NCBI GenBank assembly: GCA_943328505.2
Contig: CALQAH020000003.1
Span: 27,600 to 91,599 of the forward strand
Reading direction: 5' to 3'
DNA from: Rhizobium sp. Q54
GTDB taxonomy: Bacteria; Bacteroidota; Bacteroidia; Flavobacteriales; Flavobacteriaceae
Length of the DNA: 64,000 nucleotides
Of the stretch, positions 21,083 through 26,265 are shown in pieces; the stretch's first letter is position 1, and each line of letters opens with the position of its first letter. The position numbers and the translations under genes were made by a program. The notes beneath the pieces are model-generated. The model saw only the letters and a list, made by a program, of their open reading frames with translations. It had not been told where the DNA came from and searched no databases.

Positions 21083-23239
21083 TTAATCCCCAATCAAAAC
21101 CTCCAAAATACTAATAGCGGCTTCGCTTATCTTAGTTCCTGGTCCAAAAACTGCAACGGCTCCGGCATCAAACAAAAATTGGTAATCCTGCGCAGGAATA
21201 ACACCGCCCACGATGACCATAATATCTTGTCGGCCGTATTTTTTGAGTTCCTCAATTACTTGGGGCACTAGGGTTTTGTGTCCGGCAGCTAGTGAGGAAA
21301 CGCCCAAAATGTGCACGTCGTTTTCCACCGCTTGCTTAGCGGCTTCGGCTGGCGTTTGAAAAAGCGGACCAATATCCACATCAAAACCTACGTCGGCATA
21401 ACCCGTTGCGACAACTTTGGCACCACGGTCGTGACCGTCCTGTCCCATTTTGGCAATCATAATGCGGGGACGACGCCCTTCTTTTTTAGCGAAGGCATCT
21501 GCTAATTGTTTTGCTTTTTCAAAGCTTTCGTCGTTCTTAATTTCTTTACTATACACGCCACTAAAAGATCTAATTTGTGCTTTGTACCTGCCAAAAACTT
21601 CCTCGAGTGCATCACTAATTTCTCCTAATGTGGCTCGGTTTCGGGCAGCTTCTATGGCTAAAGATAATAAATTTTCATTTTGATGACTATCAGAATCTGT
21701 TGAATTGTTTAGCGAGGCTCTAGCACAATCTGTTAATCTTGTCAAACTGGCTTTTACTTTTTCACTATCTCGTGCCGCTTTTATTTGGTTAAGGCGTTCA
21801 ATTTGTTGCTTGCGCACCATATCGTTATCGACATCCAAAATCTGTAATGGGTCTTCTTTGTCCAAACGGTATTTGTTCACACCTACAATAATATCTTGAC
21901 TGCTGTCAATACGCGCTTGCTTTCTGGCTGCGGCTTCTTCGATACGCAATTTTGGAATTCCCGCTTCGATGGCTTTGGTCATGCCACCGAGTTCTTCTAC
22001 TTCTTCAATGAGTTTCCAGGCACTTTGAGCAATGTCATTCGTCAAACTTTCTACATAATAACTGCCTGCCCATGGGTCGACGGTTTTGCAAATTTTGGTC
22101 TCTTCCTGTAAAAAGATTTGGGTATTTCGGGCAATTCGTGCCGAGAAATCGGTGGGTAATGCGATGGCTTCGTCCAACGCATTAGTATGTAACGATTGTG
22201 TTCCTCCAAAGGCTGCGGCAGCCGCTTCAATGCAGGTTCGTGCTACGTTATTAAAAGGATCTTGTTCGGTTAAACTCCAACCCGAAGTTTGGCAATGCGT
22301 TCGCAAGGCCAAAGATTTTTCGTCTTTAGGATTGAATTGTTTGAGCAATTTGGCCCATAACATTCGAGCGGCACGCATCTTGGCAATTTCCATAAAATGA
22401 TTCATACCAATCGCCCAGAAAAACGAAAGGCGAGGAGCGAACTCGTCAATTTTCATTCCGGTGGCTAAACCTGTTCGTATGTATTCTAAACCGTCGGCTA
22501 AAGTGTACGCCAATTCAATATCGGCGGTAGCTCCTGCTTCCTGCATGTGATAACCTGAAATAGAAATAGAGTTGAATTTAGGCATTTTTTTGCTCGTATA
22601 TTCAAATATATCCGCAATGATTTTCATGGAAGGCGTTGGCGGATAGATGTAGGTATTTCGCACCATGAACTCCTTCAAAATATCGTTTTGTATGGTTCCA
22701 GAAAGCAATTCCACCGCAACGCCTTGTTCTTCGGCAGCGACTATGTAAAATGCTAATATGGGCAACACCGCACCGTTCATGGTCATGGAAACTGACATTT
22801 CATCCAGGGGAATTTGGTCGAAAAGGATTTTCATATCTTCTACCGAATCGATGGCAACTCCCGCTTTTCCCACATCGCCAAACACACGTTCGTGATCCGA
22901 ATCGTACCCGCGATGTGTGGCTAAATCAAACGCTACGGAAAGTCCTTTTTGTCCAGCAGCAAGATTTCTTCTGTAAAAGGCATTGCTTTCTTCGGCGGTG
23001 GAAAATCCTGCGTATTGGCGGACGGTCCAAGGTCGACGTACAAACATTGTGGAATAAGGTCCGCGTAAATTGGGTGCAAAACCGGCTGCGAAATCGAGGT
23101 GTTCTAATGCTGCAACGTCTTCTTCGGAGTAAAGGGGTTTTAGCTCAATATTCTCGGCAGTATGGAAGGTTTCTTTATTGGAAACTTCTAACTTCTGACT
23201 TCCTGCTTCTAGCTTTATATGTTGGATATTTTTTCTCAC
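21083..23239 (-). CDS. mutB: Methylmalonyl-CoA mutase, large (catalytic) subunit
   Basis: A 718-residue adenosylcobalamin enzyme that interconverts methylmalonyl-CoA and succinyl-CoA. The catalytic TIM barrel contains [20 protein letters not shown] and [18 protein letters not shown]. The C-terminal B12 domain has the DxHxxG motif in [10 protein letters not shown] (His603). The start codon is GTG. Residues 9-21 ([13 protein letters not shown]) are encoded by a word-like repeat (23183-23214) and look like an inserted low-complexity N-terminus. It is the last gene of the udk-ftsB-mutA-TA-mutB operon. Confidence 0.96.
23183..23214 (-). repeat. Word-like repeat inside the mutB N-terminus
   Basis: On the minus strand the stretch reads as variations of one word (AAGCTAGAAGC, AGGAAGTCAGAAG, TTAGAAGT). 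It has the same style as the intergenic word repeats elsewhere in this window, but here it lies in frame inside a coding region. Confidence 0.6.
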
Positions 23240-23259
23240 TTTAAAATGAAATTACATTT

Positions 23260-23550
23260 TTAGATTGGATATTTTTTCGGATTTTTTGAAGTATGAAAGC
23301 ATGATAAAATGTAAACTATCTTATTCTCTTCATCAATTTCAAAAAATAGTAAATAGGGGAATTTTGATACTGAAATTGCGTGATAGTTTTTATAACGAAT
23401 ACTAAAAAACGGATTTGTTTCTAATAAAAAACGGATTTCAGAAATTGTATCAATAAATTGATCTGAAACTTTTTGAGAAATTTTAGAATAGTAAAATTCG
23501 GCAGTTTCTATATCTTCTTGTGCATTTAAAGAAACAAAAATTTTATACAC
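23260..23550 (-). CDS. RelE/ParE-family toxin
   Basis: A 96-residue protein with the compact alpha-beta layout of RelE/ParE toxins: a helical hairpin (EDIETAEFYYSKISQKVSDQF) followed by beta strands (RYKNYHAISVSKFPYLLFFEI, IVYILSCFHTSKNPKK). Such toxins cleave mRNA on ribosomes or poison gyrase; which applies cannot be read. Its start overlaps the end of the antitoxin by 8 bases, the usual antitoxin-first order. The pair sits between mutA and mutB. Confidence 0.85.
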   Translation of the reverse strand: MYKIFVSLNAQEDIETAEFYYSKISQKVSDQFIDTISEIRFLLETNPFFSIRYKNYHAISVSKFPYLLFFEIDEENKIVYILSCFHTSKNPKKYPI

Positions 23551-23851
23551 CTTTTCTATTTTTTAATCTAGCTATAGATTCTTCTGCAGATATAAATGTT
23601 GATTTATCTTCTTTTGAACGTTTGTTTAATATTGATTCTAAAGATTCATCAATGTCTAGAGTTATTGATGGATCTTTTAAATATTCGGCACTTCGTTCTC
23701 TAACTTGATCTATTTGCCATTGAGGAATTGAAACATCAATATTTTGAGAAGGCATGATAATCACATCAACTTCTTCGGCATTAAAATCTTCAGGAAGAGT
23801 AATGCTTATTTTGTGATTTTTAACTTTTACGGTTTGTCTTATTGCTTCCAT
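23543..23851 (-). CDS. Antitoxin partner of the RelE/ParE toxin
   Basis: A 102-residue protein encoded immediately upstream of, and overlapping, the toxin. The N-terminal 35 residues (RQTVKVKNHKISITLPEDFN, then VDVIIMP) look like a small beta domain. The C-terminal part (IPQWQIDQVRERSAEYLKDP, then LDIDESLESI) resembles addiction-module antitoxin helices that wrap the toxin. The antitoxin role rests mainly on the gene pairing; exact family uncertain. It begins 26 bases after mutA, so it is probably read through from the mut operon. Confidence 0.75.
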   Translation of the reverse strand: MEAIRQTVKVKNHKISITLPEDFNAEEVDVIIMPSQNIDVSIPQWQIDQVRERSAEYLKDPSITLDIDESLESILNKRSKEDKSTFISAEESIARLKNRKGV

Positions 23852-23877
23852 TGTTTCTTTTTGATAAAGTTATGAAA

Positions 23878-25275
23878 TTATTCATTTGCTAATCGTTCCT
23901 GTTCCATTTTCTCCGCCAATCGTTTTTCAATAATGGGGACAATTAATGTTTTGCGGGGATTTTGTTTTACAAACGGATACAATTCCAAATCGTGTTTCAT
24001 GCGGTCGTTTTTGTTGGGATATTTGTTGGTGCCCAACAAGGTTTCCTTTCCGCTGTTGAATAATTCCTGTTCTTTTTGAGCGCTTTCTGCAATTTTTCTT
24101 TGGATAGTTCCTTCGATTAATTGGGTAATGAATCCTCCTTTTTCTTCAATGTCTTTAAACAATAACAGGGCTTTTTCGGCTAGTTGTTCGGTAAGACTTT
24201 CAATGTAATAGGTTCCGTCGGCAGGATTATTTACCGCATCGAAATAGCTTTCTTTTTTTAAAATCAACAGTTGATTTCTGGAAATTCTATCGCCAAACTC
24301 ATTGTCTTTGTGGTACAAATTGTCATACGCCAAATTAGAAATCGCATTGGCACCACCCAAAATGGCACTCATGCATTCCGTTGTAGTTCGAAGCATATTG
24401 ACATTGTAATCGTATAAAGTTTTGTTGCGTTTGGTAGGCGTTGCGATGATATGGCAATCAAAATTGTGATGGTATTCTTTGGCTAAAGTGGCAAACAATA
24501 AACGCAAAGCGCGCATTTTTGCAATTTCAAAAAAGTAATTGGTGCCAATCGAAACCTCGAGGGTTATAGGATGTCCTATAGCTAAATTACGGTTGAAATA
24601 TTCATTGACATGAGCTAAAGTATACGCCAATTGTTGTACCATATTGGCACCAGCATTTTGATAAATTCCTGATTGGATATTTATAAAAGGAACTATAGGC
24701 ATTTCATTGTCAGGGTCTTCAGCTGATGGTGCAAATCCTTTTACTTTTTCTAACCCTCCAAAATCGGTCTCTAAATTAGAAAACCAATTGCCCTCTTTCA
24801 CTAATTGACCTATTGGATCTACTTGAATTATGAATTTGGAATTATCATTTCTGTAGGCATAATTCATAATAGCAAGCTGCATATAATCAATGTCCAAAAA
24901 TGGAAGATTAAAATAATAAACCGTATTTTCTATCGGAAGTCCTTGCATTAATTCTTCGATGGAAACATCCTTGTTTTCAATCGTAAAGCGAATACTTTCG
25001 GCACCGCGATTTAACGTATCTAAAGCACGTTCGTTTGATTTTTTAACATCGTGAACGAAGATATTTTGTAAAATAGAAAACGGATGTTCGGGCGTTTTTA
25101 TATTGAGTTTGGCGCGCGCTTCATCACTGTGGTAAAAGGGTTTTACTTTAATGCCTTCTGGACTTTCCCAAACTAAAGTTTCATTGTAATCGGCGCCTTT
25201 TAGTTCGTATTGAATTTGTTGTTTCCATTGTTTGGAAGACACAGGTTCGAACTCTTTGAATAATGAATCGTCCAT
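23878..25275 (-). CDS. mutA: Methylmalonyl-CoA mutase, small subunit
   Basis: A 465-residue homolog of the MutB barrel and the non-catalytic partner in the heterodimeric enzyme. Visible segments are SSKQWKQQIQYELKGADYNE, the barrel motif LEVSIGTNYFFEIAKMRALR and DGTYYIESLTEQLAEKAL. It ends before any B12-binding domain, shorter than the roughly 600-residue small subunits of many bacteria. It lies 12 bases after ftsB/divIC and is separated from mutB by a toxin-antitoxin pair. Confidence 0.93.
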   Translation of the reverse strand: MDDSLFKEFEPVSSKQWKQQIQYELKGADYNETLVWESPEGIKVKPFYHSDEARAKLNIKTPEHPFSILQNIFVHDVKKSNERALDTLNRGAESIRFTIENKDVSIEELMQGLPIENTVYYFNLPFLDIDYMQLAIMNYAYRNDNSKFIIQVDPIGQLVKEGNWFSNLETDFGGLEKVKGFAPSAEDPDNEMPIVPFINIQSGIYQNAGANMVQQLAYTLAHVNEYFNRNLAIGHPITLEVSIGTNYFFEIAKMRALRLLFATLAKEYHHNFDCHIIATPTKRNKTLYDYNVNMLRTTTECMSAILGGANAISNLAYDNLYHKDNEFGDRISRNQLLILKKESYFDAVNNPADGTYYIESLTEQLAEKALLLFKDIEEKGGFITQLIEGTIQRKIAESAQKEQELFNSGKETLLGTNKYPNKNDRMKHDLELYPFVKQNPRKTLIVPIIEKRLAEKMEQERLANE

Positions 25276-25287
25276 TTTGTAATGATT

Positions 25288-25635
25288 TTATAAAGATTTT
25301 GACTTTTCATCCGGAATGCTATCGTCTTCAAACTCGATGATATAAATATCTTCGCTATCTTTTTTCATGAAGTATTTTTCGCGCGCGTATTTTTCTATCT
25401 GATCTGGGTTTTTAAGATTTTTGATATTTTCCTGGTCTTTTCTAATTTCGTCTTGATAGTACTTTTTATTGTCCTCCAGTTCATCCAATTGTTTGTCCAA
25501 AACACGGTGTTCTAAATAGGAATAATTGTCTAAAAAAAGCATCCAAATAGTAAAAAAAGCCAACACGATAACGTATCTATTGCCTAGAATTTTTAGGATA
25601 GGATAGCTTTCGGATAGTTTTTTAAAATTACTCAT
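25288..25635 (-). CDS. FtsB/DivIC-type septum formation initiator
   Basis: A 115-residue bitopic protein: a short cytoplasmic start, one membrane helix (about residues 22-38, YVIVLAFFTIWMLFLDN) and a coiled coil (LDKQLDELEDNKKYYQDEIR) with the family motif NPDQIEKYAREKYFMKKDSE. Members bridge early and late division proteins with FtsL and FtsQ at the septum. It lies between udk and mutA with gaps of 21 and 12 bases, an arrangement that suggests co-transcription. Confidence 0.88.
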   Translation of the reverse strand: MSNFKKLSESYPILKILGNRYVIVLAFFTIWMLFLDNYSYLEHRVLDKQLDELEDNKKYYQDEIRKDQENIKNLKNPDQIEKYAREKYFMKKDSEDIYIIEFEDDSIPDEKSKSL

Positions 25636-25656
25636 AGGTTACTTTGTTTTGTAAAT

Positions 25657-26265
25657 TTATGTAATTCTTTGATTAATTACCGCACGAACCACGTCAATTG
25701 CAACAGTGTTGTATTTATCGTTTGGAATGATAATATCAGCATAGGCTTTAGTTGGTTCAATAAACTGTTGGTGCATTGGTTTTAATGTGGTTTGATATCG
25801 GTTAAGCACTTCTTCCATATCACGACCGCGTTCGGCAATGTCTCTTTTTAATCTTCGAATTAATCGCTCATCAGAATCGGCATGAACAAAAACTTTTACA
25901 TCAAACAAATCGCGTAATTCGGGATTGGCTAAGATTAGAATTCCTTCAACAATCATTACTTTCCGAGGATGTGTTTTGATGGTATCATCGGTTCTATTGT
26001 GTGTAACAAAGGAATAAACAGGTTGTTCAATGGTTTTGCCGTCTTTCAAATCTTTCAAATGTTGAACTAAAAGTTCAAAGTCGATAGCACGAGGATGATC
26101 AAAATTAATTAAAGATCTTTCCTCAAAACTTAGGTTGTGGTTTTCCTTGTAGTACGAGTCTTGTGAAATAATACCCACTTCGGTTTGTGGTAATTCATTC
26201 ATGATTTGATGTACAACGGTTGTTTTGCCGCTACCTGTTCCACCTGCAATTCCAATAATGAGCAT
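25657..26265 (-). CDS. udk: Uridine kinase
   Basis: A 202-residue P-loop kinase that phosphorylates uridine and cytidine in pyrimidine salvage. Walker A is GGTGSGKTT (residues 8-16). ISQDSYYKENHNLSFEERSL, NFDHPRAIDFELL and the lid FVHADSDERLIRRLKRDIAERGR are family hallmarks. It is the first gene of the minus-strand operon leading to the mutase; a -7 box lies 27 bases upstream. Confidence 0.95.
   Translation of the reverse strand: MLIIGIAGGTGSGKTTVVHQIMNELPQTEVGIISQDSYYKENHNLSFEERSLINFDHPRAIDFELLVQHLKDLKDGKTIEQPVYSFVTHNRTDDTIKTHPRKVMIVEGILILANPELRDLFDVKVFVHADSDERLIRRLKRDIAERGRDMEEVLNRYQTTLKPMHQQFIEPTKAYADIIIPNDKYNTVAIDVVRAVINQRIT

What the first reader, a model, noticed from the sequence alone, without database searches (positions are those of the whole stretch)
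23246..23880. Toxin-antitoxin pair inserted between the two methylmalonyl-CoA mutase subunit genes
mutA and mutB encode one heterodimer and are normally adjacent. Here a RelE/ParE toxin and its antitoxin lie between them, in the same direction with gaps of only 20-26 bases, so the pair is probably read from the mut operon. A 9-bp direct repeat (ATGAAATTA) brackets the insertion and could be its footprint. Coupling an addiction module to a core operon could protect the operon from loss, or tie toxin levels to propionate metabolism.
Basis: partly seen in the sequence, partly recalled or inferred. Interest (0 to 1): 0.7.

Follow-up and report, generated by a model that had tools for sequence, protein, structure and literature searches.

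The report
Swapping toxin-antitoxin slot inside mut operon
In Flavobacterium the gap between the two methylmalonyl-CoA mutase genes is a slot that species keep refilling with different small genes, and this window holds one filling: a ParE-type toxin with a patchwork antitoxin whose family was found almost only in this slot, which lets us see how such pairs move and change partners.

Summary
In detail: an antitoxin (23543-23851) and a ParE-fold toxin (23260-23550) lie between mutA and mutB, same strand, gaps of 26 and 20 nt. The 9-bp ATGAAATTA repeat is chance-level (about 12%) and absent from all 91 empty sister sites, so it is not a footprint. The pair is not a one-off insertion: the mutA-mutB gap is a variable cargo slot. 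Of 151 readable Flavobacterium junctions 62 hold 195-3066 bp of cargo (TA pairs, lipoproteins, secreted proteins, DUF1016 nucleases, small membrane proteins); all clustered cargo families are on the mut strand. Sister species differ in cargo; neighbouring operon gaps are almost never filled. The antitoxin family is tied to the slot: 42 of 42 loci found in 84,980 genomes and the best 30 of 30 in 400 congeners lie there. Its N-terminus and leader stay constant while its C-terminus and toxin are exchanged; the window's antitoxin is a chimera of both C-terminal types. Fossil mutA and mutB ends between stacked cargo suggest that cargo travels as alleles of the mut operon by recombination. TA leaders carry a promoter-like element; other cargo mostly does not. 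Toxicity, neutralisation and transcription are untested.

The parts
23878..25275 (-). mutA, methylmalonyl-CoA mutase small subunit, upstream wall of the slot
   Evidence: Pfam MM_CoA_mutase E 9.5e-75; best NCBIfam match is the small-subunit model TIGR00642, below its cut-off
23852..23877 (-). 26-nt TA leader; TAACTTT (23872-23866) 21 nt before the antitoxin ATG resembles the Bacteroidota -7 promoter element
   Evidence: TAnnTTT in 22 of 26 TA leaders against about 4 expected, 2 of 89 empty junctions, 3 of 27 other cargo
23543..23851 (-). antitoxin, 102 aa: constant N-terminus (residues 1-36), type-2 segment (37-70), type-1 segment (71-102), a chimera
   Evidence: segment scores; alignments; close family members found only in this slot
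23260..23550 (-). ParE-fold toxin, 96 aa, GTG start, type-1 toxin group
   Evidence: Pfam ParE_toxin 27.5 bits; AlphaFold model pLDDT 90.5; Foldseek best hits ParE
21083..23239 (-). mutB, methylmalonyl-CoA mutase large subunit, downstream wall of the slot; starts 20 nt after the toxin stop
   Evidence: PRK09426 1318.7 bits
23246..23254 (+). ATGAAATTA copy 1, judged a chance repeat
23872..23880 (+). ATGAAATTA copy 2: mutA stop codon plus TA leader, judged a chance repeat
25288..26265 (-). divIC (25288-25635) and udk (25657-26265), upstream genes whose gaps served as control junctions

Best explanation
The 20-26 nt gaps mark the edges of a variable cargo slot between mutA and mutB. The TA pair is one allele of that slot. 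Alleles of the mut operon carrying different cargo are exchanged between Flavobacterium species by recombination that uses mutA and mutB as anchors. Exchange of the whole interval replaces cargo. A join of the 5' end of one mutB to the 3' end of another mutA stacks cargo and leaves scars. The antitoxin leader and N-terminal domain stay at the site, probably as an autoregulatory unit, while the C-terminal neutralising segment and the toxin are swapped as a block. The window's antitoxin, with a type-2 and a type-1 segment in tandem before a type-1 toxin, is the product of such a swap. The pair probably works as an ordinary type II ParDE-like module, from its own weak promoter plus mut read-through. 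Shown by sequence: the slot, the turnover, site-fidelity, mosaicism and scars. Inferred: homologous or homology-assisted recombination as the route, autoregulation, ParE activity and the expression pattern.
For: 62 of 151 junctions hold cargo and 89 are empty, typically TAA + 2-3 nt + ATG; clustered cargo families are all co-directional. At least 39 empty/filled changes on a 155-species mut tree; near sisters hold different cargo. Control gaps in the same genomes: coding cargo in 0 of 29 (divIC-mutA) and 1 (udk-divIC), against 10 of 29. Antitoxin family in the slot in 30 of 30 and 42 of 42 loci. Antitoxin N-termini are 67-69% identical within and between types, while toxins are 49-54% within and 30% between. 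L008 and L134 (mutA 96%) share leader and about 60 antitoxin codons nearly letter for letter, then diverge; toxins 30% identical. Secreted-protein cargo 98% identical between species whose mutA is 81%, with raised identity reaching into the mutA end. Scars of mutB 5' and/or mutA 3' ends between stacked cargo in L133, L191, L203. Higher near-junction divergence when cargo differs (median ratio 1.6 against 0.9-1.15).
Against: Scars were found in only 3 of about 9 stacked junctions. Species pairs in the flank test are not independent, and the mutB N-terminus is variable anyway. Some patchiness could be loss from an ancestral cluster; parsimony cannot separate gain from loss. The mut tree may itself be distorted by recombination. 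Promoter evidence is a consensus match. No experiment shows toxicity or neutralisation.
Confidence: 0.74

Rival explanations
1. A single insertion of a small mobile TA unit into the mutA-mutB gap of this lineage, leaving a 9-bp target duplication.
For: The repeat is present at both edges, and the nearest relative by mutA/mutB tree (L088) has an empty junction.
Against: The repeat is chance-level and absent from 91 empty sites; the same antitoxin family sits at the same site in dozens of species; the left copy is stop codon plus conserved leader.
Confidence: 0.04
2. An ancestral mutA-[several small genes including TA]-mutB cluster in Flavobacteriaceae, with repeated independent losses and vertical descent of what remains.
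For: About half of the sampled genera hold cargo there, with some shared families, and one other genus (L259) has a homologous TA. Some TA pairs track mutA identity (L130/L147, L020/L027).
Against: Many cargo families each in few scattered species; 98% identical cargo with 81% mutA; cargo 36% identical with 95% mutA (L156/L157); scars with mut ends between modules; toxin replacement between near sisters.
Confidence: 0.15
3. The TA pair was recruited to regulate or protect the mut operon, so that toxin activity follows propionate or branched-chain amino acid metabolism.
For: Co-directional packing without a terminator makes read-through likely, and the antitoxin family is site-specific.
Against: Most junctions lack a TA while mutA is nearly universal in the genus; unrelated cargo occupies the same slot; TA modules have a promoter-like element of their own.
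Confidence: 0.07

Closest known systems
Chromosomal TA pairs in intercistronic gaps of Escherichia coli and Salmonella (relA-mazEF-mazG, dinB-yafNO-yafP, ccd in folA-apaH; PMC7167474)
   Same: A TA pair inside a host operon or gene pair that is undisturbed in other strains; one site can hold unrelated TA pairs or other elements.
   Different: Here the site spans a genus and family, holds many cargo kinds that stack, has an antitoxin family tied to the site, and keeps scars that suggest the route of movement, which that review calls unelucidated.
HGT hotspots between core genes turned over by homologous recombination at the flanks (PMC5635113)
   Same: Fast cargo turnover between conserved genes, no integrase or transposase seen in the cargo read, flank signs of recombination.
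   Different: The slot is a 2-nt gap inside one enzyme's operon, cargo is 0.2-3 kb and co-directional, and the comparison is across species.
Panacea (PanA) antitoxins with partner swapping (PMC8832971)
   Same: A conserved antitoxin part persists while toxin partners change.
   Different: No Panacea domain here; the antitoxin C-terminus changes with the toxin, both toxin groups are ParE-like, and the swap happens at one fixed locus with chimeric intermediates.
ParDE type II toxin-antitoxin systems
   Same: Small overlapping antitoxin-toxin genes, ParE fold and Pfam match of the toxin.
   Different: The antitoxin is not recognised by any curated ParD model and has a distinct N-terminus (predicted beta hairpin, low confidence).

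Membership tests
ParE toxin family (PF05016) | Profile match above the curated cut-off | tested here: met
   27.5 bits against cut-off 23
ParE toxin family (PF05016) | ParE/RelE fold closest to ParE | tested here: met
   AlphaFold pLDDT 90.5; ParE chains TM about 0.75-0.83, RelE/YoeB mostly 0.55-0.72
ParE toxin family (PF05016) | Inhibits DNA gyrase | not testable with these tools
   needs a biochemical assay
RelE mRNA interferases (TIGR02385) | Profile match above the curated cut-off | tested here: not met
   14.5 bits against 27.9
Type II toxin-antitoxin system | Two small overlapping genes, antitoxin first, conserved as a pair | tested here: met
   8-nt overlap; paired in about 25 junctions with matched antitoxin C-terminus and toxin type
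Type II toxin-antitoxin system | Antitoxin protein neutralises the toxin; autoregulation | not testable with these tools
   promoter-like element only
Unstab_antitox (PF09720) | Profile match above the curated cut-off | tested here: not met
   18.8 bits against 23.3, residues 39-69 only
Panacea (PanA) antitoxins | Panacea domain (DUF4065) | tested here: not met
   no such Pfam hit for the window antitoxin at E up to 1
Transposition-type insertion with target duplication | Direct repeat at the edges, single copy at empty sites | tested here: not met
   0 of 91 empty sites; chance-level repeat
HGT hotspot maintained by homologous recombination | High cargo turnover between conserved genes | tested here: met
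HGT hotspot maintained by homologous recombination | Recombination at flanking core genes | tested here: inconclusive
   scars, raised flank identity or divergence; no formal recombination test

The most novel reading that the evidence does not exclude
Tandem chimeric antitoxins, such as the window's, are stepping stones of toxin replacement: an incoming antitoxin tail plus toxin is fused in frame behind the resident antitoxin, giving one protein that neutralises both the old and the new toxin class, so partners can be exchanged at the resident, autoregulated site without killing the cell. Five cases were seen (window, L008/L296, L132/L298, L297, L300); L300 keeps a nearly complete type-2 antitoxin fused to a full type-1 tail.
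Probability: 0.3. Interest if true: 0.78.

Novelty: new variant of a known kind. Interest (0 to 1): 0.62.

Why it matters
How chromosomal TA pairs move between hosts and settle into genomes is described as unelucidated (PMC7167474). This locus gives dozens of filled and empty alleles, sister species with different fillings, joins that keep pieces of the host genes, and chimeric antitoxins caught between two toxin types. It makes both the route of movement and the route of partner change testable at one site, in culturable Flavobacterium. It also warns against reading function into the neighbourhood: the mut operon is probably a landing place, not a partner.

Tried and rejected
Footprint reading of ATGAAATTA: rejected. 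Sigma-70 and terminator scans of the region: no more than shuffles, uninformative for Bacteroidota. PADLOC on the TA pair: no match; only the DUF1016 nuclease and the Bro-N fragment from other junctions match candidate defence families well. Antitoxin structure prediction: low confidence (pLDDT 60.8), not used. Antitoxin profile against PDB sequences: chance hits only. Two antitoxin alignments held a mistyped row and were discarded; one search replaced them. In one search one of the four sequences (L132) was taken from the wrong strand and is ignored; the comparison used is L008 against L133/L134. A wider gap control with 20-kb loci gave few shared genes and did not list mutA-mutB itself, but repeated the udk-divIC (0 of 20 over 150 nt) and divIC-mutA (3 of 20, 206-295 nt) results. 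Literature search for mut plus TA plus Flavobacterium: no paper. A first Fisher count used 11 instead of 10 filled junctions; the corrected values are.

Full report
What is there. On the minus strand the order is udk, divIC, mutA (23878-25275), a 102-aa antitoxin (23543-23851), a 96-aa toxin (23260-23550) and mutB (21083-23239), with 26 nt between mutA and antitoxin, an 8-nt antitoxin-toxin overlap and 20 nt between toxin and mutB. The toxin passes the ParE_toxin cut-off. Its model is confident (pLDDT 90.5) and lies closest to ParE structures, not to RelE (sub-threshold). The antitoxin has no curated family match above cut-off. The genome is a Flavobacterium: the same-genus genome G032 has a contig of the same length (1,283,390 bases) as a named record of Flavobacterium cucumis DSM 18830.

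The footprint. ATGAAATTA occurs at both edges, but a shared word of 9 nt or more occurs in about 12% of left/right flank pairs taken from different junctions, and the distribution within junctions is similar (13 of 62 at 9 or more, including the window). None of the 91 empty junctions contains it. The left copy is the mutA stop followed by a leader that recurs in other species' TA modules.

The slot. I read the mutA-mutB junction in 155 Flavobacterium genomes, ranked by mutA similarity, so not a random sample. In 151 the state could be called: 89 empty, usually a stop codon, 2-3 nt and the mutB start, and 62 filled with 195-3066 bp. Fillings fall into families: 27 antitoxins with 25 toxins, large secreted proteins with a type IX sorting tail, about 208-aa lipoproteins, 150-aa exported proteins, 60-73-aa membrane proteins, DUF1016/YhcG nucleases, TonB-C proteins. 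Every member of a clustered family points the same way as mut. Fillings stack in about nine junctions. In the same genomes the divIC-mutA gap held no coding cargo in 29 and the udk-divIC gap one reverse ORF, against 10 of 29 for mutA-mutB (Fisher p 0.0008 and 0.005). Across about 100 other genera of the family, roughly half also have cargo-sized gaps there; in the 29 junctions read the cargo is mostly two lipoprotein families, and one other genus carries a homologous TA pair.

Turnover. On a tree of mutA plus the mutB start, filled/empty needs at least 39 changes (shuffled labels 39-56, mean 48). Near sisters differ: L161 lipoprotein, L164 TA, L172 empty; L132 TA, L135 secreted protein; L133/L134/L008 TA, L144 lipoprotein. 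The same secreted protein is 98% identical in L124 and L150 although their mutA proteins are 81% identical, and the same slot in L156 and L157 (mutA 95%) holds proteins 36% identical.

A slot-bound antitoxin with changing partners. The 30 best antitoxin matches in 400 congeners (the window's own among them) all lie between mutA and mutB, and so do all 42 loci found independently in a scan of 84,980 species genomes. That scan used short peptide patterns, so it reaches close relatives only; weaker antitoxin hits elsewhere exist, and at least one (G016, different contig from mutA) is outside the slot. Related toxins are also found elsewhere in genomes, with other antitoxins. Within the slot, antitoxins share an N-terminus (67-69% identity whether or not they share a C-terminal type) but have two C-terminal types, each with its own toxin group (toxins 49-54% identical within, 30% between). 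L008 and L134, with mutA 96% identical, share the leader and about 60 codons of the antitoxin almost exactly and then diverge completely, with toxins 30% identical. The window antitoxin is a chimera: residues 37-70 match only type 2, residues 71-102 only type 1, and its toxin is of the type-1 group. L008/L296, L132/L298 and L297 are similar; L300 joins a nearly complete type-2 antitoxin to a type-1 tail.

How cargo moves. Three stacked junctions keep pieces of the walls between modules: L133 has the last 35 nt of mutA (32 of 35 identical) between a membrane-protein gene and the antitoxin; L191 has 25 nt of the mutB start between a lipoprotein and a nuclease; L203 has a mutB start fragment (28 of 30) followed by a weaker mutA end fragment between the toxin and a nuclease. 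Such joins are expected if a donor segment mutA-cargo-mutB recombines with a recipient whose mutB start is joined to the donor's mutA end. In L124/L150 the identity rises over the last few hundred bases of mutA before the shared cargo and drops at its far end. Pairs with different cargo have more divergence within 120 bp of the junction than pairs with the same state, but those pairs are not independent. Homologous or homology-assisted recombination with imported mut DNA is my inference from these facts; no integrase or transposase was seen in the cargo annotated.

Expression. In 22 of 26 TA leaders a TAnnTTT motif stands 21-28 nt before the start (in some a second copy lies further up), against about 4 expected, 2 of 89 empty junctions and 3 of 27 other cargo. 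This resembles the Bacteroidota -7 element (established knowledge). Shared ancestry of the leaders inflates that count, but two leader types of different sequence (TAACTTT and TATATTTG) keep the motif at a similar distance. Other cargo begins mostly 0-12 nt after mutA and probably depends on the mut transcript. So a TA promoter plus read-through is likely, not tested.

Function. Nothing ties the pair to propionate metabolism: mutA is present in 333 of 335 good genomes with or without the pair, and unrelated genes use the slot. I take the pair to be an ordinary ParDE-like module whose interest lies in its site.

Relation to known things. TA pairs in intercistronic gaps are known (relA-mazG, dinB-yafP, folA-apaH), with the route of movement called unelucidated (PMC7167474). 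Hotspots turned over by recombination at core flanks are known (PMC5635113). Partner swapping of antitoxins is known for Panacea (PMC8832971). The combination here, a slot-bound antitoxin, chimeric intermediates and scars made of the host genes, is in none of the passages I read of these three papers.

Limits. Draft genomes and MAGs are included, but the arrangement recurs in isolates and single-contig genomes. Parsimony does not separate gain from loss. Five chimeras and three scars are small numbers.

Noticed in passing
window 23265-23278 and 23222-23235: An exact 14-bp direct repeat (GAAAAAATATCCAA on the minus strand) links the toxin's 3' end and the mutB 5' end; probably a coincidence of KKYP and RKNIQ codons, but a better microhomology than the 9-bp repeat.
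   Followed up: partly
L237-L265 (other Flavobacteriaceae genera): Two lipoprotein families of about 210-220 aa sit between mutA and mutB in many of the other genera read; function unknown.
   Followed up: partly
L034, L035, L040, L056, L071, L072, L079, L081, L082; L049, L061: Other ParE-type TA pairs of the genus also recur at fixed chromosomal sites, next to a dipeptidase-like gene and between a glnS-like and a folB-like gene.
   Followed up: no
L014, L335, L337: Junction antitoxins without a recognisable toxin, possible decayed pairs.
   Followed up: no
L009, L121, L170, L191, L203: DUF1016/YhcG nucleases (PADLOC candidate PDC-S02) occupy the same slot, so it may also serve as a place for phage-defence genes.
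   Followed up: partly
L300 2501-2848: A 115-aa antitoxin that joins a nearly complete type-2 antitoxin, with its conserved motif partly decayed, to a type-1 tail.
   Followed up: yes
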